A DNA stretch of 62,543 nt. It comes from Paenibacillaceae bacterium ZCTH02-B3. Its GTDB lineage: Bacteria > Bacillota > Bacilli > Paenibacillales > Paenibacillaceae. The translations under genes and the position numbers were made by a program. Positions 1 through 7,597 of this stretch are shown piece by piece; within the stretch, counting starts at the first letter, position 1, and the number at the start of each line of letters is the position of its first letter. The stretch is taken from assembly GCA_002159065.1 (NCBI GenBank), contig LZRV01000100.1:1-62543 (forward strand), in the 5' to 3' direction. The notes under the pieces are model-generated. The model saw only the letters and a list, made by a program, of their open reading frames with translations. It did no database searches and was not told the DNA's origin.

Positions 1-587
1 CCGTTCTGGACATGCGTGCTGCCTTCCCGCAGTTCGACGTTGACGCCGTAACCCTCCTGGCCCAGGTAAGCAAATATGGGCGCGTAGCCGTCGAAACCTT
101 TGTAGGTGCGGCAGACGCCTTCTTTTCGGGTGCCGGAATTGTCAAAGGGAGAAACGTCGATGTCCAGCGGTACGCAGACGACCGAACCGGCCTGAACACC
201 GGTAAGCGGCGCCTGGACGCGGCGAATCAGATCGGCGGATTCCTCCAGAAGAATCTCGTTCCATCCCGCCGCTTCTGTCGCAGCACGATCCAGGCGTTGC
301 CGAAGCGTCGGGCTGGAGGGCACTTTTTGCAGTTGCAAACAGATCGGAAATACATCGTCGTTCCGAAACGGCTCAATATGGTCGAAATCGCTCTTGCCTT
401 GGCAGAGAAGCCCGATGTAACTTTTCATCACGTCGGCATGAGAATGATAGGGGTTCTCCATCTCCGAAAGGCGTGTATGGTTTAAACGCTGGGCTAATCT
501 GGTATGTGCAAGCAATGCCCCTACGGTTGCAAGACCGGCATGGGTGGAAAGGATAAGCTCCTTGGAGCGGACGAACTTGATTTTCAT
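1..587 (-). CDS. IS1380-family transposase, N-terminal part (cut by window edge)
   Basis: DDE transposase of an IS1380-type insertion sequence; catalyses excision and reinsertion of the element. About 195 N-terminal residues are present, beginning MKIKFVRSKELILSTHAG and including the conserved stretch DIDVSPFDNSGTRKEGV followed by TYKGFDGYAPIFAYLG, which is a hallmark of IS1380 transposases and contains the first catalytic aspartate region. The reading frame is open to base 1, so the gene is cut by the window rather than by mutation. The start at 587 is the first ATG of this frame and matches the usual N-terminus of the family. Expression would run leftwards, in the same direction as the large NTPase operon to its right. 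Confidence 0.93.
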   Translation of the reverse strand, partial: MKIKFVRSKELILSTHAGLATVGALLAHTRLAQRLNHTRLSEMENPYHSHADVMKSYIGLLCQGKSDFDHIEPFRNDDVFPICLQLQKVPSSPTLRQRLDRAATEAAGWNEILLEESADLIRRVQAPLTGVQAGSVVCVPLDIDVSPFDNSGTRKEGVCRTYKGFDGYAPIFAYLGQEGYGVNVELREGSTHVQN

Positions 588-695
588 ATATGACACCCCG
601 CAGGTGAATGTTATCTTGTTTATGTCATTCGCCTTCGGAAGTGTATTTGCCTGCTTTTTCTCGCATTTTCATCAGTTGATGATCACGGATTCAGG
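1..695 (-). mobile_element. IS1380-family insertion sequence, one end, cut by the window edge
   Basis: The element is recognised from the transposase it carries. Its outer end is placed tentatively at 695, because on the minus strand the sequence there reads CCTGAATCCGTGATCA, which resembles the CCT-beginning terminal repeats of IS1380 elements such as ISEcp1. The other end and the target duplication lie outside the window, so the boundary is inferred. The position matters because it falls inside a short open gene stub (683-868). Confidence 0.6.
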
Positions 696-868
696 TCTCG
701 CCATTCAAACCCATCGTTTTCCAGCCATTTTTCTTTCAAATAGGTTTTGAACCGCTTGGGGGGGTTTTCGGGAAAACGTACAAACACCTGTTTGCCGTCA
801 GCCAAATCAGCGCTGATTCTTTCCAAAAAACGGGCTGGTCCTGGAAGCGACCACCAGAGAAAACTCAA
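683..868 (-). pseudogene. stub of a second operon gene, apparently interrupted by the IS1380 element
   Basis: Short frame of 61 codons whose ATG overlaps the stop of the giant NTPase gene (ATGA, 865-868), so it is translationally coupled and probably encodes that protein's partner. It begins MSFLWWSLPGPARFLERI and continues with a hydrophobic strand (KQVFVRFPENPP), which looks like the N-terminus of a larger folded protein rather than a complete product. The final three residues and stop fall where the IS1380 end is inferred (about 695), so the natural gene probably continued and was cut by the insertion; the rest would be beyond the element, outside the window. I do not recognise the family. 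Alternative: a complete small protein, less likely given the IS junction. Confidence 0.55.
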
Positions 869-3800
869 ATTGAATCACCGGCTTCAAGCACCAACTTGGC
901 GACCAGCGGATCCGCTTTCCAGATTCCTTTGCCCGCTTGTCTGGCGGTTCCTAGTAATTCGGCGCAGACCAGGATTGACCTCACCATTTCCGCCGGAATC
1001 TTGAGCGTATCGGATATTTCTTGGAAATGGACATCACCGAGCGCTACATACTGCAGTACACTCTTCACTTCGTCGCGTGAAGCGCCGAATTCGCTCAGGA
1101 TCACGTCCATCAGGTCTTTTTCCAGAATGTTTGTTTCGAATTCCTGAATGAAATGCTGCAGTTGATGGGGATTCTTTCGGGCTTTATCGTACAATCGGTA
1201 AAGCAGGCTCGACCAGTTCCCCGTCGCGTTTTCAATCTTTTCAATGACCGGACGGGTATTTTCAAATTCGCAATCGCTGAGCCACAGCCCCACCGTAGAA
1301 GGATGCCAAGGTTTTAACTGCAGGATCAGGATGCCCGCTTCCAGCAGATCATCCACAAAATCGGGATTTTGCCGCGCCAGAGCCAGCGTGTGTTCGGCAT
1401 CCGCTAAAAAGATGACGTACAGCTTATCATAGCGCTTCGAAGAATCGAGGAACTCCCTAATCTCCTTGACCCATTCCGTTGTCCAGGGACAATCAAAATC
1501 CACCAAGATGAACACTTTATCGGCGCGCGTTTCGCCCATCTCCCGCAATTGACGGAGGAATGCGGATTTTTCCATTACGCCGCTGATGACCCGCAATTGG
1601 AATTGACCCGCGTCTTGTCGATCCCGCAGGTATTCCTTCACTTCGCCGATACCCGCCGCTTGATGGCCGAAGATGATCGAAACTCTTTTCGGCGATTGCA
1701 TCAGTTCCGACTCCTGCTCGGCCGTCAACGGGCTGCGCCGGGAATTGGGCGGGACTCCTTCAACTCGGTAGGAAGGCCTGAAGTGCGCCGCATCGTATTC
1801 CGTCAAAATTACACGGTCGGTCCTGAGCAACTCCTCTTCGATTTCATTTTTTGTACCCATCAGGGAAACCAGATTGGGGCTGCGGAGGCAGTAATATCCT
1901 TCCCGGACCCGCCGGAGCACCCCGAGATCCACCATCTCATCCAGCAGGACACGGAAAGAGTCCATCGCCATATTGGAAAACCCTTCCGACCAATAATCCA
2001 CGGAATGTCTCAGAATCTCCTTGACGGGAATACCGTTCTTCGGTACATCGTCATCTCCCAGAGATTCGAGGGCGATGACATGGGCGATCACTTTGTACCT
2101 CGGGTCGAGTTGAAGCGTCAGGTTGAATCGATGCTTGATCGCCTGTTGCAACTCACGGTCCTGGTAAGCTTCGTCCACCTGCCGGGCAGTGATGATATAA
2201 GGCGGCGTTTTGGCCGAGAACGACATGAGCGAACGATGGTCCAGCAAATGGCGAAGCAACTGATGGCAATACAATTGAATCAGGCTCGGATAATAGTTCG
2301 TTTGCGACAAAATCTGCAGGACCAAGTCAGGCGTTTCGAAGAAATAGCCTAGCGCTGCAAGCGGTTTGGTGATCAGCTCATAGGCATCTTTCCATTCCCC
2401 TTTAGACATGAGGGGACCGACGCAGATGGCCTGGCCCAGATGCGCCAATGGGTCGTTCTGGTTTTTGAATGACCGTTGCACGTTATGAAGACCGGCGAAA
2501 ACCACATGGAACCGCTTGTTGGTTTTTTCCATGAAACCTTTGATTTTCGAGCAGCGGATGAAACCATTGCCGCTCCGATTCCGTTCATCGGCTGAAATTC
2601 CGTAATCTTTTGCGTCCATTTCCAAAAACCGGTCAGCTTCATCAAGCAGCAGCAGGATCCGCCGCCTCCAGTCCTTATCCAACCAGTCCTGGATTTGCTG
2701 GAACAGTTTGTCCGCCGAATTGACATTCGGTTTGATTTCGGAAAGGCCGACGCGATTCAATTCCCGAGCGATGACGTTCCAGATTTCGTCAATGGATTTG
2801 TTCAAACCGATCCCTTCGGCCTTTAAATCGATCCAGACCGCAAGCCGTCCGTCACCCGGCGAATGGAACCGCCGCTCCGCTTCGCGAAGAAGCACCGTCT
2901 TTCCCAGTTGCCTGCCACCGTAAACCAGCCCCGAGCGTCCTTCCATGATGGCCTGCAATTCGGCCTTCCGCCCAAAAAACATTTCCGACGGCAGAAGGGA
3001 AGCGGTGGTTTGATAAGGTTCCAGATACGTAAATGGCAAAGCTAGTTTGAAAAACACCGGCAGGCGGGAACCCCTCTCCCCACACAGATACAGGAGCAGC
3101 ACTTCGTCCAGCACGATGAACGTCCGTCTGCGCTCCCGGCACAGTCTCGCCAGTTCACGTCGGTTTTGGGCGCTGAGGCGACCGAAAAAGAATACGATGG
3201 CCGGCAAATGCCCGTCTCCGATATTGCTGATTTCATTAAGCATGTCCTCCGGAGACAACCTGTCCCAGAACGCCACAAGCCGATAATGGCCTTTGGCCTG
3301 CGAACCGTAGAAAGGAACCGGGCATCGATTGGGATCCGACAGAACTTCCGTCTTGATAATCTGATAATCACGGGATGTTTTGGAAGTAGGGGTTCGATCC
3401 ACAGATTTAACCGAAAGACCGATATTGTTCAAGATCACCCGGATGTCCCGCTCTTCCACCACTGTCCGGCTGGAGGACTTTTTGGCGCGTCTCCACGCTT
3501 CCAACATTTCGGCCGCCTGGCGGCGCTGGGCGCTCGGCAATTGCCCCATGTCCAACGGACCGACATTTTTGCCGTCCTTGATCATATTGATGATTCTGCT
3601 CAAATCCGTACTATTGAGCGTTTTGATCAATTCCTGAAATACGGTGGCATCCGGATCAAAAAATTCACGGAAAGGTTCGCGTTCCTGCTCTTTGGATGAC
3701 AGCGACTCAAAAACAATTTCCTCATTGTTCTGAATACGGCTTAACAATTCTTCGGCCGTGTACAAATTCCCGGTTTCCAAAATTTTCTTTATCTGGTCAT

Positions 3801-6240
3801 AATGCGGGTGGGATTCGGTCACACCGGCCTCCCGGAACCGCCGTTTCATGCGTTCCCGGGCTTCGTTCCGTTCCCTTTCAAGGTCGGAACGCAATTGTTC
3901 CAGTTTGCCCAATGCTTCAGGGAAATAAAGGATCTCGTCTATCGACCGTTCCAGAGGTTCCAGTTCGGTCAAATATTTATTTCGCTTATGATCATCGATC
4001 AAATTGTGGGTAAACGCGGTTTCAATCTGTTTGACAGCATCCCGGATGCTGTGCCGCAGCGAATCCCTGTATTCTTTCAGACGGATGTCTAACCGTTCCT
4101 CAAGTTTGTCCCGGTTAAGCCCAAGCGTCAACAGTTCCTCGTCTCCGGCCGTCTCCAGCATCAGTCGGCAGCCTTCCACATCCCTCCGGTCCAGCCGGGC
4201 ATTGAACGCTTCTTCAAAAGACGGCAGACCGTCTTCCATCGTACGGACCAGTTCTTCAACGGGAAATCCGCCGGCCGCATCATACAGGGTCCAGTCGGAC
4301 CGGATGCCGATGGCGGGAATCTTCAGCAGGGGATGGTTGAGGATAAAATCGGCTTTCGGTTCTTTATTGGGAACGGGAGTGTTCGGGTCGAACAGAGCGA
4401 AGACTTCCCGGACGGCCCACTCCAGCAGGACGAAGGCGGACTTTGCGGAAGCCTCTCCGGCGCTGGCGGCCTGCTCACGCAATTCGCCGATCACCTCCTC
4501 GTAGCGCGGCCGGATTCCTTTCTCCAGTCTCTTGGCGATTTGCTGATGGTATTCATTGCTGTGACCAGGCTGGCTGTTTACAAGCCGGATCCATTCCCTG
4601 ACCAGCTCCATCGCTTCGTCGAAATTGGAACGCAGTTGCTGCAAAGCCCGCGCCGTGATATCCTTGCCCGACTGTCTGCCGAGTTCAAACCGGTCCGTAT
4701 AATGAACCCGGCTCCTGAACTCGTTGGGATCCATGTATTTGTCGAGGAAGGTACGGGCTTCTTCCACTTTTTCGGTTCGATTCTGCAAAATACAATCCAG
4801 CCAAAAATGCACCCAACCTTGGGGTTCCATCCATTTCATCCAAACCTTGGATGCAGCCTGGAACAAAATGGTGGACGAAGAAAGCTTGCGGATCGCTTGT
4901 TCCGTGTCTCGTCTCAGTTTTGCCTGTTCTTCCTTCCAGGCGGCTTCCGTTTTCAGATTGTGCAGAACATAAGGATCCAGAGGGATATAATGGGACGCAA
5001 AGTCCTTCACGTGATCGATGAAGTTGTACATCCGCCCCCTGAAATTGATCTTTTGGAGGATTTGGAGCGCGTTGGTGCCCGGAGCCAATATCGCGGGCTT
5101 CAGAGCGGCAGCCGCCATCAAAAGGCCGTATACATGGTCTTTGAACTTTTCGGCAAATCCTCCGCTAAGCCAGCTTTCGAACATCCCTTTCAAACGATTG
5201 GCGATTTCCCCGACATCGAAACGTATATATTGTGCAAGAAGGGTCGCCTGGATCAGATCGGGCAGAACGCGCCGGTCGTCTTCGCTTTGCCCGTAAAGAT
5301 GTTCGGCCAGCCTGTAGGCTTGGGACAACCGATTTTCTTGCATCCACTTCCACAACAAACGTTCCCATTCCGAGGCATGCGGTTCGCCGGCAGCGTCGGA
5401 ATCTATCTTTTCTGACGGAAATTCCGATTGGGTCTGAGTCTGATCGGCGGTTATTGTTTCGGGTATTTTTTCTTCCGGTATGGTTTCTTCCTTTTGTTCC
5501 TTTTCTTCTTTTACTTCCTTTTCTTCCGTTTGAACAGCGACGCGATTTTCTTCCGGTTCAATACGCGTCAGCGGAACTTCGTCAACGTCAGCCTCGCTCA
5601 AAAATGCCGCAGCGATTTGGTCGGTATGACGCTCCTCCTGTGAAGAATGTTCGAGGGAAGGAGGCTCGAGATAAAGCCTTTTGCGCAATAAGGCTGCGGC
5701 AATTTTTTCATTCAGTCTGCCGCGCACCAATTCTTCGAATTTTAGCCATTCGTCATCCGCAAGGGATTGACCCTCGTGCAGCATCCGGACCAAAGCCATG
5801 TACGGTTCAATCTCTTTTAAATAATTTTTTTCATAAAAATCATGATTTTCCATATCATTAATGAGCAACTGTACTCGGGAATACAAATCTGACAAAACAG
5901 CTTCATCAGCCGGTGATGTGGATTTGATGTTCAGGCACATTCTCAGCCATTTTTCGTATTCTCTTTTCAGATTTTGGGCGTGAATTTTTTCTTCGGCAAA
6001 ATCAAAAATTTCTTGCAGGGTTCGAAAAGTCTTTTCTTCATTGTGGCATTCCAATAATATTAAATTCAACAATTGGTCAACAGACGAGCGAAAATGTTCA
6101 ATCTTCCCACTCAGATGGTCGGGAGGAAGGATCCCTTCATCCTTCAGTTGGGTACCGGTCTGAATCAGCGTGTCAGCCAACTGTTCCGACTCGGTCCGCA
6201 AATCATTTATTAGCTTTCGAACTTCGTCCATGTTTTTCAT
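865..6240 (-). CDS. giant multidomain STAND/AAA-like NTPase (1791 aa), putative conflict-system protein
   Basis: No named family recognised. Seen in order: helical N-terminus (1-230), a Glu/Lys-rich linker (about 237-290), a long helical region with predicted coiled coil around 740-820, a compact alpha/beta segment (about 980-1085) ending LPFTYLEPY, then an NTPase domain with Walker A YGGRQLGKT (about 1108), Walker B LLLLDEADRF (about 1195) and a sensor-like strand FHVVFAGLHNVQR, followed by winged-helix-like sequence. A further module (about 1518-1650) has a Walker A-like but degenerate loop FGHQAAGIGE and a strand VFILVDFD, then helices to the C-terminus. No TM segment is seen. This architecture resembles large STAND/AAA sensors in bacterial defence loci; that role is inferred. 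The first ATG at 6240 has only a distant GAGG. The gene is clearly more AT-rich than the rest of the window, suggesting transfer. Confidence 0.8.
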   Translation of the reverse strand: MKNMDEVRKLINDLRTESEQLADTLIQTGTQLKDEGILPPDHLSGKIEHFRSSVDQLLNLILLECHNEEKTFRTLQEIFDFAEEKIHAQNLKREYEKWLRMCLNIKSTSPADEAVLSDLYSRVQLLINDMENHDFYEKNYLKEIEPYMALVRMLHEGQSLADDEWLKFEELVRGRLNEKIAAALLRKRLYLEPPSLEHSSQEERHTDQIAAAFLSEADVDEVPLTRIEPEENRVAVQTEEKEVKEEKEQKEETIPEEKIPETITADQTQTQSEFPSEKIDSDAAGEPHASEWERLLWKWMQENRLSQAYRLAEHLYGQSEDDRRVLPDLIQATLLAQYIRFDVGEIANRLKGMFESWLSGGFAEKFKDHVYGLLMAAAALKPAILAPGTNALQILQKINFRGRMYNFIDHVKDFASHYIPLDPYVLHNLKTEAAWKEEQAKLRRDTEQAIRKLSSSTILFQAASKVWMKWMEPQGWVHFWLDCILQNRTEKVEEARTFLDKYMDPNEFRSRVHYTDRFELGRQSGKDITARALQQLRSNFDEAMELVREWIRLVNSQPGHSNEYHQQIAKRLEKGIRPRYEEVIGELREQAASAGEASAKSAFVLLEWAVREVFALFDPNTPVPNKEPKADFILNHPLLKIPAIGIRSDWTLYDAAGGFPVEELVRTMEDGLPSFEEAFNARLDRRDVEGCRLMLETAGDEELLTLGLNRDKLEERLDIRLKEYRDSLRHSIRDAVKQIETAFTHNLIDDHKRNKYLTELEPLERSIDEILYFPEALGKLEQLRSDLERERNEARERMKRRFREAGVTESHPHYDQIKKILETGNLYTAEELLSRIQNNEEIVFESLSSKEQEREPFREFFDPDATVFQELIKTLNSTDLSRIINMIKDGKNVGPLDMGQLPSAQRRQAAEMLEAWRRAKKSSSRTVVEERDIRVILNNIGLSVKSVDRTPTSKTSRDYQIIKTEVLSDPNRCPVPFYGSQAKGHYRLVAFWDRLSPEDMLNEISNIGDGHLPAIVFFFGRLSAQNRRELARLCRERRRTFIVLDEVLLLYLCGERGSRLPVFFKLALPFTYLEPYQTTASLLPSEMFFGRKAELQAIMEGRSGLVYGGRQLGKTVLLREAERRFHSPGDGRLAVWIDLKAEGIGLNKSIDEIWNVIARELNRVGLSEIKPNVNSADKLFQQIQDWLDKDWRRRILLLLDEADRFLEMDAKDYGISADERNRSGNGFIRCSKIKGFMEKTNKRFHVVFAGLHNVQRSFKNQNDPLAHLGQAICVGPLMSKGEWKDAYELITKPLAALGYFFETPDLVLQILSQTNYYPSLIQLYCHQLLRHLLDHRSLMSFSAKTPPYIITARQVDEAYQDRELQQAIKHRFNLTLQLDPRYKVIAHVIALESLGDDDVPKNGIPVKEILRHSVDYWSEGFSNMAMDSFRVLLDEMVDLGVLRRVREGYYCLRSPNLVSLMGTKNEIEEELLRTDRVILTEYDAAHFRPSYRVEGVPPNSRRSPLTAEQESELMQSPKRVSIIFGHQAAGIGEVKEYLRDRQDAGQFQLRVISGVMEKSAFLRQLREMGETRADKVFILVDFDCPWTTEWVKEIREFLDSSKRYDKLYVIFLADAEHTLALARQNPDFVDDLLEAGILILQLKPWHPSTVGLWLSDCEFENTRPVIEKIENATGNWSSLLYRLYDKARKNPHQLQHFIQEFETNILEKDLMDVILSEFGASRDEVKSVLQYVALGDVHFQEISDTLKIPAEMVRSILVCAELLGTARQAGKGIWKADPLVAKLVLEAGDSI

Positions 6241-6478
6241 TGTACTGCCAGCACCTCAATGAACACTCGATTTTTTTCGATTCTGTGGGTGGACCTAGGA
6301 AAAAATGCCTATAAAAAATTACGACAAGACGAGTCGAGTTTCCTTCATTTTTGCATAAAATTTGTCGATTTAAAAAATCAGACCGCCAGATAAATTTCGA
6401 CTGTCCAGTTTGATAAAATGTGACTTTCTCATGCGAGCCACACGGCTGAAATTTACCATCCGCCGGGTCAATCCCGCT
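6241..6478. other. AT-rich intergenic region upstream of the giant NTPase
   Basis: No gene seen. The stretch is markedly AT-rich with several A/T runs (for example around 6300-6375), and should hold the promoter of the leftward NTPase operon, but no -35/-10 pair with good spacing stands out. It also marks the right-hand edge of the low-GC segment; the next sequence is the decayed transketolase fragment. Confidence 0.5.
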
Positions 6479-7082
6479 TCAACCCGTCAGCGAGGCGAGG
6501 CTCTTCTTTTTGCGGATCGCCCGGCGCGCAACGTCGGCGATCGCTTCCGGGGTCATGCCGTATTTCTTGAGCAGCGCGTGGGGTTTGCCGGATTCGCCGA
6601 AGGTGTCCTGGGTCCCGACGCGGACCACCATCACCGGATAATGCTCCGCCAGCACCTTCGCCACCGCGCCGCCCAAACCACCGTAGATGGAATGCTCTTC
6701 CGCGGTCACGACGCAGCCGGTTCTTTTCGCCTCGGCGATGATGGTTTCCTGGTCGATCGGCTTGATTGTGTGCATGTTGACGACGGACGCGGAGATGCCT
6801 TCCCTCTTCAGCATGTCGCTCGCTTCCAGCGCCATACCGACCATGATGACGCTCCCCGCCGGTGCGCAGCGTGCGCGCCTTGCCGATCAAAAAGGGCTCC
6901 CGGATCCTGTCTGTCAAATGCGGGAAAGCCAACCGGGTGAGCCGCAGATTGACCGGTCCCTGCATTTCGGCCGCCGCGATGGTAGCCAGGCGCGTTTCGG
7001 GTCCGTCCGGCGGCACGATCACCGTCATGCCCGGCATGAGGCGCATGGCCACGATGTTGTCAACAAAAAAGCGATCTGCCCG
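6479..7082 (-). pseudogene. transketolase C-terminal fragment, truncated and frameshifted
   Basis: Remnant of the C-terminal half of a transketolase (pyrimidine-binding plus C-terminal domains). The upstream part (about 7080-6860) reads IVAMRLMPGMTVIVPPDGPE and later PFLIGKARTLRTG in one frame; the downstream part (6844-6479) reads MVGMALEASD, VVNMHTIKPID, TAEEHSIYGGLGG and GTQDTFGESGKP in another. Between them, near 6850, a frame change together with loss of several codons joins the two. The first 130 or so residues expected of a TktC subunit are absent, and the sequence runs straight into the terminator of the globin gene. It cannot make a functional enzyme. It is a relic, probably left by the rearrangement that brought in the neighbouring accessory segment. 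Confidence 0.85.
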
Positions 7083-7104
7083 GCCTCCTTCTTCGTGGAA
7101 GGAA

Positions 7105-7135
7105 CAAAAAAACGGGCTTGCCCGCGCAAGCCCGT
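7105..7135 (-). terminator. Rho-independent terminator of the globin gene
   Basis: Perfect 10-bp inverted repeat ACGGGCTTGC / GCAAGCCCGT with a 4-base loop, followed on the minus strand by a run of seven T. It lies 37 bases after the globin stop. Confidence 0.9.
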
Positions 7136-7171
7136 CGGTTTCGTGCATTATGCCGCCGCCGGCCGGTCCGG

Positions 7172-7597
7172 TCAGCTGTTGACGAAATGGTACGCCGGTC
7201 CTTTCAGCCGCTCGAGCACCAGCTCCTGCAGCTCCAGAGAAAGCCCGGTTTCCTGCAGCGCCCGGCGCATGCAATCCAGCCAGGCCTCTGCCCGTTCGAC
7301 GGTGATCGGAAACGGCAGATGGCGGGCGCGCATCATCGGATGGCCGTACTTCATGGAATAAAGGGGCGGACCGCCGAAAAACTGCGAAAGAAACATGAAC
7401 TGCTTCTCCATGAGCGGCCGGATGTCGTCCGGAAAGAGCGGCCCGATGAGCGGATCGGCCTTCACCTTCGGATAGAAGGCTTCCACCAGACGGCGGATCG
7501 TCGGCGCTCCCCCGATTTTTTCGTAAATCGTCTGTCCGTCTTCCTCGAATGCAAACGGCACGGCTCTCCCACCCGTTTTCTTTTCTCCCGTGCGCAT
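7172..7597 (-). CDS. truncated (2/2) haemoglobin, GlbO/YjbI type
   Basis: Small haem protein that binds O2 or other diatomic ligands in the cytoplasm; in Bacillales the YjbI relative is linked to protection from oxidative and nitrosative stress. Family marks: YEKIGG near the N-terminus, KQFMFLSQFFGGPP, and the proximal-histidine region RARHLPFPITVERAEAWL. Length about 141 residues, slightly long at the N-terminus. I chose the ATG at 7597; an ATG at 7621 would add eight charged residues and has no better ribosome site. The gene is divergent from the MFS transporter and ends at a strong terminator, so it is a single-gene unit. Confidence 0.88.
   Translation of the reverse strand: MRTGEKKTGGRAVPFAFEEDGQTIYEKIGGAPTIRRLVEAFYPKVKADPLIGPLFPDDIRPLMEKQFMFLSQFFGGPPLYSMKYGHPMMRARHLPFPITVERAEAWLDCMRRALQETGLSLELQELVLERLKGPAYHFVNS

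What the first reader, a model, noticed from the sequence alone, without database searches (positions are those of the whole stretch)
683..6240. Interrupted operon with a giant NTPase: candidate undescribed conflict system
A 1791-residue protein with coiled-coil/helical N-terminus, a compact alpha/beta segment, an intact NTPase (YGGRQLGKT, LLLLDEADRF) and further C-terminal modules is translationally coupled (ATGA overlap) to a second gene of which only a stub remains. The block is AT-rich against a GC-rich background and is flanked by an IS and a decayed gene, as expected for an acquired defence-type island. I cannot assign it to a named system; similarity to STAND/AAA sensors is by architecture only.
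Basis: partly seen in the sequence, partly recalled or inferred. Interest (0 to 1): 0.8.

Follow-up and report, generated by a model that had tools for sequence, protein, structure and literature searches.

The report
Giant STAND sensor with HEPN partner
This is a widespread but apparently unnamed two-gene bacterial operon, a giant ATP-switch protein coupled to an RNA-cutting partner, which most likely senses invaders and shuts the cell down; the copy in this genome has its cutting gene split in two by a jumping element.

Summary
The 1,791-residue NTPase is real and intact. The downstream gene is not a lost stub. It is a conserved ~380-residue gene split by one IS1380 copy, and its other half lies on contig C131 of the same genome. 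Relatives in many bacterial phyla carry the same pair, tightly coupled: the partner follows the giant in about 63 of 81 informative loci. In reverse, all 15 genomes found by searching with the partner alone have the giant next to it. The giant contains an active STAND/Cdc6-type NTPase and a second STAND module without a P-loop. The partner is a P-loop-less STAND fused to a HEPN RNase domain (Arg 42/42, His 41/42). In some Alphaproteobacteria the giant is fused to pPIWI_RE; in Cyanobacteria to a complete sigma-70 factor, usually beside a PLD-helicase. Best explanation: an NLR-like sensor that activates a HEPN RNase, probably abortive anti-invader defence. Activity, defence and sensing are inferred, not shown. 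The organisation was predicted before (nSTAND2 two-gene system, eLife 2021), but the nSTAND2 profile does not match this family. It has no PADLOC model and no name that I could find.

The parts
865..6240 (-). Giant STAND NTPase gene, 1,791 aa, intact
   Evidence: ORF; AAA_22 E 1.4e-7; 35% relative in G058; 563 related stretches in genome contigs
4444..6240 (-). Residues 1-599: variable helical N-terminal part with charged linker (about 206-290); position taken by sigma-70 or pPIWI_RE in some relatives
   Evidence: No Pfam match in the window; sigma-70 in 8 of 48 N-termini scanned and 12 cyanobacterial giants; pPIWI_RE in L006
3454..4443 (-). Residues 600-929: helical (solenoid-like) region
   Evidence: AF2 model m0c97331723e1, mean pLDDT 89
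3019..3453 (-). Residues 930-1074: compact alpha/beta domain, conserved G979-S980 and D1045; fold not assigned
   Evidence: AF2; conservation
1816..3018 (-). Residues 1075-1475: active STAND/Cdc6-type NTPase with winged-helix region
   Evidence: VIA-align: 2qen Z 20.0, rmsd 4.2, 323 aligned; ORC2 1w5t Z 18.9; plant NLRs Z about 16
2896..2919 (-). Walker A, GGRQLGKT (1108-1115)
   Evidence: K1114 61/61, G1113 61/61
2638..2655 (-). Walker B, LLLLDE (1196-1201)
   Evidence: D1200 and E1201 61/61
868..1770 (-). Residues 1491-1791: second STAND-like module without a P-loop
   Evidence: CED-4 8jol Z 15.2, rmsd 4.9, 272 aligned over model 892-1192; no conserved GK[ST] at the P-loop position
696..868 (-). 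5' part of the iSTAND-HEPN partner gene (TTG start overlapping the giant's stop as TTGA); the rest is on G000:C131 3567-4541 (-), outside the window
   Evidence: 37% identity to the L002 partner N-terminus; other half, E 6.9e-50
1..695 (-). End of the IS1380 element that splits the partner gene (contig ends inside it)
   Evidence: IS1380 transposase E 4.1e-43; 8 matching places in the genome; IR CCTGAATCCGTGA
696..701 (.). GCGAGA, candidate target-site duplication, repeated at the C131 junction

Best explanation
The operon encodes a two-protein, NLR-like switch. The giant is the sensor and motor. Its variable N-terminal half and helical region receive the trigger, its active STAND/Cdc6-type NTPase drives an ATP-dependent change or oligomerisation, and its second, P-loop-less STAND together with the partner's P-loop-less STAND completes a mixed ring. 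Assembly brings the partner's C-terminal HEPN domains together, switching on RNA cleavage that stops or kills the infected cell (abortive anti-invader defence). Shown: gene pair, domain content, motif conservation, linkage, co-variation of the two proteins, fusions. Inferred: complex formation, RNase activity, trigger, defence. In this genome the effector gene is interrupted by IS1380, so the system is probably disarmed.
For: Partner directly downstream in about 63 of 81 informative loci across many phyla. All 15 genomes found with the partner profile alone have the giant upstream. Active NTPase motifs conserved 61/61 and second P-loop lost. HEPN Arg 42/42 and His 41/42; weak Pfam matches concentrate on HEPN families, HEPN_Swt1 in 12 and DUF4145 in 5 of 42 members. 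Structures: giant NTPase matches STAND/ORC/NLR at Z 16-20 and its C-terminus CED-4 at Z 15; partner residues 1-268 match ORC/STAND/Avs5/NLR at Z 10-11. Giant and partner distances correlate, r 0.85, 0 of 5000 permutations as high. Fusion to pPIWI_RE inside a REase/helicase island. Patchy presence (5 of 395 genomes in the order, 11 of 398 in the phylum), plasmid carriage and anomalous GC.
Against: No experiment. No PADLOC model matches the window protein or the partners (three marginal hits in other giants). Neighbourhood enrichment for defence genes against matched control regions was inconclusive. Sigma-70 fusions in Cyanobacteria, mostly without HEPN, fit a regulatory role as well. No match in phage records. 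The correlation of distances is partly common ancestry. HEPN assignment rests on motif, context and weak profile hits; the structural comparison did not test that part well.
Confidence: 0.6

Rival explanations
1. Transcription or stress regulator: the STAND ATPase works on RNA polymerase or promoter DNA, and HEPN or other partners process transcripts. Sigma-70 fusion would be the telling form.
For: 12 cyanobacterial giants carry a complete sigma-70 (regions 1.2-4) at the N-terminus. The NTPase also resembles DNA-binding Cdc6/ORC, MuB and TnsC.
Against: Sigma fusion is confined to Cyanobacteria here. The same core is fused to pPIWI_RE elsewhere. Distribution is patchy and partly plasmid-borne, unlike a core regulator.
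Confidence: 0.15
2. Toxin-antitoxin or plasmid-maintenance pair: the giant holds a HEPN toxin in check.
For: Tight two-gene coupling; plasmid carriage in 27 records; partner never found without the giant in the survey.
Against: A 1,791-2,450 aa ATP-driven protein is far larger than any known antitoxin (established knowledge). The giant also occurs without HEPN (Cyanobacteria, some Actinomycetota). In this genome the giant stays intact although the effector is broken.
Confidence: 0.12
3. A direct restriction system: the STAND/Cdc6-like ATPase scans invader DNA (as BrxC or TnsC do) and HEPN is only a back-up; nucleases such as the PLD-helicase or pPIWI_RE do the main work.
For: pPIWI_RE with REase and helicase in Alphaproteobacteria; PLD-SNF2 helicase beside cyanobacterial giants; Cdc6/ORC/TnsC likeness.
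Against: Most loci have only the giant and iSTAND-HEPN, with no conserved DNase or methylase in the operon.
Confidence: 0.13

Closest known systems
nSTAND2 two-gene counter-invader system (PMC8195603, Fig. 6C)
   Same: Two-gene mobile operon; one active STAND, one with eroded NTP motifs fused to an effector that is often HEPN.
   Different: The Pfam nSTAND2 model matches none of 9 giant cores at E<=10 (nSTAND1 and NB-ARC match 2 each) and none of 10 carrier genomes; here the active protein is giant, with helical region, alpha/beta domain, a second iSTAND, and pPIWI_RE or sigma-70 fusions; GT4 effectors not seen.
BREX BrxC-BrxB and DUF499/Hma (BREX-related) systems (PMC12839542)
   Same: ORC/Cdc6-type ATPase with an inactive STAND partner (BrxB); HEPN fused to the DUF499 ATPase.
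   Different: No BrxC, DUF499 or BrxB profile match; no conserved methylase, PglZ or helicase in the common two-gene form.
Avs (STAND) and plant/animal NLRs
   Same: STAND switch, helical sensor region, effector activated by assembly (mechanistic analogy; Avs5, Roq1 and CED-4 appear among fold matches).
   Different: Effector is a separate gene with its own inactive STAND; no PADLOC Avs match.
pPIWI-RE three-gene system (PMC3702460)
   Same: Alphaproteobacterial relatives carry the whole pPIWI-RE, REase-Y and Z-helicase set, with the giant as C-terminal extension.
   Different: The 2013 paper mentions neither ATPase nor HEPN; the window operon has no pPIWI_RE; Cupriavidus and Tolypothrix pPIWI-RE lack the extension.

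Membership tests
STAND NTPase class | Walker A/B plus STAND-type helical and winged-helix region after the NTPase | tested here: met
   K1114 and DE1200-1201 61/61; 2qen Z 20, NLRs Z about 16 over model 475-875
HEPN superfamily (partner) | RxxxxH active-site motif in a C-terminal helical domain | tested here: met
   R 42/42, H 41/42; helical C-terminus; weak HEPN_Swt1/DUF4145/Csx1_HEPN matches
HEPN superfamily (partner) | Fold match to solved HEPN structures | tested here: inconclusive
   Fold search filled by the STAND part; residues after 268 barely tested
nSTAND2 two-gene system | Operon of an active and an inactive STAND, the latter fused to GT4 or HEPN | tested here: met
   definition from the paper read
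nSTAND2 two-gene system | NTPase matches the nSTAND2 profile PF20702 | tested here: not met
   0 of 9 cores at E<=10; 0 of 10 carrier genomes at E<=0.01, while the model does find 3 of 398 other genomes
BREX / DUF499 (Hma) | BrxC, DUF499 or BrxB profile | tested here: not met
   No match in Pfam, PADLOC, NCBIfam
Avs | PADLOC Avs profile with fused effector | tested here: not met
   No PADLOC match of the window giant; effector is a separate gene
pPIWI-RE system | pPIWI_RE protein in the locus | tested here: not met
   Absent from the window operon; present only as a fusion in some relatives
Anti-phage defence system | Protection against phage in an assay | not testable with these tools
   Needs experiment

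The most novel reading that the evidence does not exclude
A distinct, unnamed, cross-phylum defence platform in which one giant STAND/iSTAND core is plugged to interchangeable recognition modules (helical N-termini, the guided nuclease pPIWI_RE, or a complete sigma-70 factor) and to interchangeable effectors (iSTAND-HEPN, perhaps a beta-CASP RNase or a PLD-helicase), so that guided-nuclease or transcription-linked recognition triggers NLR-like cell shutdown.
Probability: 0.4. Interest if true: 0.8.

Novelty: new variant of a known kind. Interest (0 to 1): 0.62.

Why it matters
It would add a widespread family to bacterial NLR-like immunity, one that keeps sensor and killer in separate proteins joined by inactive STAND modules. 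The natural fusions are the most useful part: a PIWI-RE nuclease or a whole sigma-70 factor attached to the same STAND core suggests directly testable triggers (guide-matched nucleic acid; hijacked or altered transcription), which are unknown for most such systems. The PIWI-RE fusion also offers a function for a family whose biological role is unsettled.

Tried and rejected
Viral contigs and phage records: no relative. PDB sequence search: none. PADLOC and NCBIfam naming: none for the window protein. Defence-gene enrichment of neighbours against control regions of the same genomes: both sets give about 30 families at E<=1e-15; the case set holds a cognate-looking type II R-M pair, Dsr2, DruE, E1-E2/JAB and mad2, but the counts do not separate the sets, so I make no enrichment claim. 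Beta-CASP RNase as a swapped effector rests on one locus (Frankia L102, 4-bp overlap) and is only a lead; the downstream genes of L093 and L109 were not resolved. Alpha/beta domain 930-1074 looked restriction-endonuclease-like by topology, but no catalytic motif was evident and it was not folded alone, so it is left unassigned.

Full report
Observation. The window ORF at 865-6240 (-) encodes 1,791 residues. Pfam sees only AAA_22 at 1101-1208 (E 1.4e-7); PADLOC and NCBIfam see nothing useful. The gene is AT-rich for its surroundings: GC 51% and GC3 0.59, against 63% GC for the rest of the window and GC3 0.83-0.84 for two neighbouring genes. Downstream, a TTG start overlaps the stop as TTGA.

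The broken partner. The 61-residue stub resembles the first 60 residues of a conserved ~380-residue protein encoded directly downstream of relatives (37% identity). A search of the window's own genome with that protein finds a second piece on contig C131: an open frame of 324 residues covering the rest, with the motif RNHLAH. Both junctions carry opposite ends of the same IS1380 element, which matches 8 places in this genome. The genome also holds one full copy with inverted repeats CCTGAATCCGTGA (L018). The same six bases, GCGAGA, flank both junctions. A single IS insertion splitting the gene is the simplest reading; contig adjacency is inferred, not assembled. After the partner on C131 comes a convergent gene that looks like tryptophan synthase beta (by eye), so the operon has two genes.

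Distribution and linkage. tblastn finds 27 plasmid records and no phage. A pattern scan of about 85,000 genomes confirms 563 related stretches; the best 80 (L023-L102) come from Bacillota, Cyanobacteria, Pseudomonadota, Acidobacteria, Nitrospirae, Verrucomicrobia, Planctomycetes, Myxococcales, Deinococci, Gemmatimonadota, Latescibacteria, Actinomycetota and others. Of 89 loci, 60 have the partner on the same strand downstream, 56 of them with a tight junction as called; three more count once ORF starts or a frameshift are allowed for, and eight end too early to tell; so about 63 of 81. A 4-base overlap is the commonest spacing (12 loci). The independent test is the reverse search: a profile of the partner hits 5 of 395 genomes of the order and 11 of 398 of the phylum, 15 distinct genomes in all. 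Every one has the giant next to it (for G000 the two halves lie on two contigs). Pairwise distances of the two proteins correlate (r 0.85, 0 of 5000 permutations), part of which is shared ancestry.

Domains. The AF2 model of residues 600-1791 has mean pLDDT 89. Residues about 1075-1475 match STAND/Cdc6 proteins: 2qen Z 20.0 (323 aligned, rmsd 4.2), ORC2 Z 18.9, plant NLR resistosomes Z about 16. Residues 1491-1791 match CED-4 (Z 15.2, 272 aligned) but have no P-loop lysine. The Walker lysine and the DE pair are invariant in 61 sequences. The partner model has pLDDT 94.5; residues 1-268 match ORC/Cdc6, CED-4, Avs5 and NLR modules at Z 10-11, again without a Walker A motif. The C-terminal part carries R-N-x-L-A-H with Arg 42/42 and His 41/42, and weak Pfam hits concentrate on HEPN families.

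Fusions and swaps. In Azospirillum, Bradyrhizobium and Microvirga plasmids the giant is the C-terminal half of a 3,100-3,400-residue protein. Pfam confirms pPIWI_RE_X, MID and RNaseH domains in the Azospirillum protein, beside REase-Y and Z-helicase genes and a WYL regulator; the other two share the gene order and resemble its pPIWI_RE half. The partner there has an extra AAA_33 kinase-like domain in Bradyrhizobium. In 12 cyanobacterial loci the N-terminus is a complete sigma-70 factor, usually without HEPN and usually next to a PLD-SNF2 helicase. One Frankia locus has a beta-CASP RNase overlapping the giant by 4 bases. In two genomes of the window's own family (G291, G340) the giant stops before the second STAND yet keeps the HEPN partner.

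Mechanism. The anatomy is that of an NLR-like switch divided over two proteins: active STAND plus inactive STANDs that could form a mixed ring, with HEPN domains, which work as dimers in known RNases (established knowledge), brought together on activation. RNA cleavage and cell shutdown would follow. The trigger is unknown. Steps shown are architecture, conservation and linkage; steps inferred are assembly, cleavage and defence.

Known or new. An operon of this logic was predicted in 2021 as nSTAND2 (PMC8195603). The Pfam nSTAND2 profile finds none of our giants though it works in other genomes. BREX uses a comparable ATPase/iSTAND pair, and BREX-related systems fuse HEPN to a DUF499 ATPase (PMC12839542), but no profile of those families matches. 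The pPIWI-RE paper has no mention of ATPase or HEPN (PMC3702460); a PIWI-RE from Pseudomonas stutzeri was reported as a guided nuclease (PMC10991935). Literature search was limited to the held open-access library, so an existing name elsewhere cannot be excluded. I rate it a new variant of a known kind.

Noticed in passing
L030 5357-12730 and 11 other cyanobacterial loci (L003, L024, L026, L027, L034-L038, L043, L059): Complete sigma-70 factor fused to the N-terminus of the STAND giant, usually next to a PLD-SNF2 helicase gene and without the HEPN partner.
   Followed up: partly
L006 6532-16302, L010 5485-14787, L108 5200-15384: pPIWI_RE nuclease fused to the STAND giant inside a pPIWI-RE island, followed by a HEPN-family gene that in L010 has an extra AAA_33 kinase-like domain.
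   Followed up: partly
L102 4741-6993: Beta-CASP metallo-beta-lactamase RNase overlapping the end of a Frankia giant by 4 bases: possible swapped effector, one case.
   Followed up: no
L137 and L139 (G291, G340): Shorter giants that end before the second STAND module but keep the HEPN partner.
   Followed up: partly
window 6468-7274: Two ORFs in different frames that read like a frameshifted transketolase C-terminal half (by eye, no search).
   Followed up: no
L018 564-2195: A full IS1380-family copy (about 1.63 kb) in the same genome with a 5-base target duplication TACGA.
   Followed up: yes
L008 14943-21219: On an Agrobacterium plasmid the pair is followed by ThiF-like and patatin-like genes, reminiscent of CBASS parts.
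   Followed up: no
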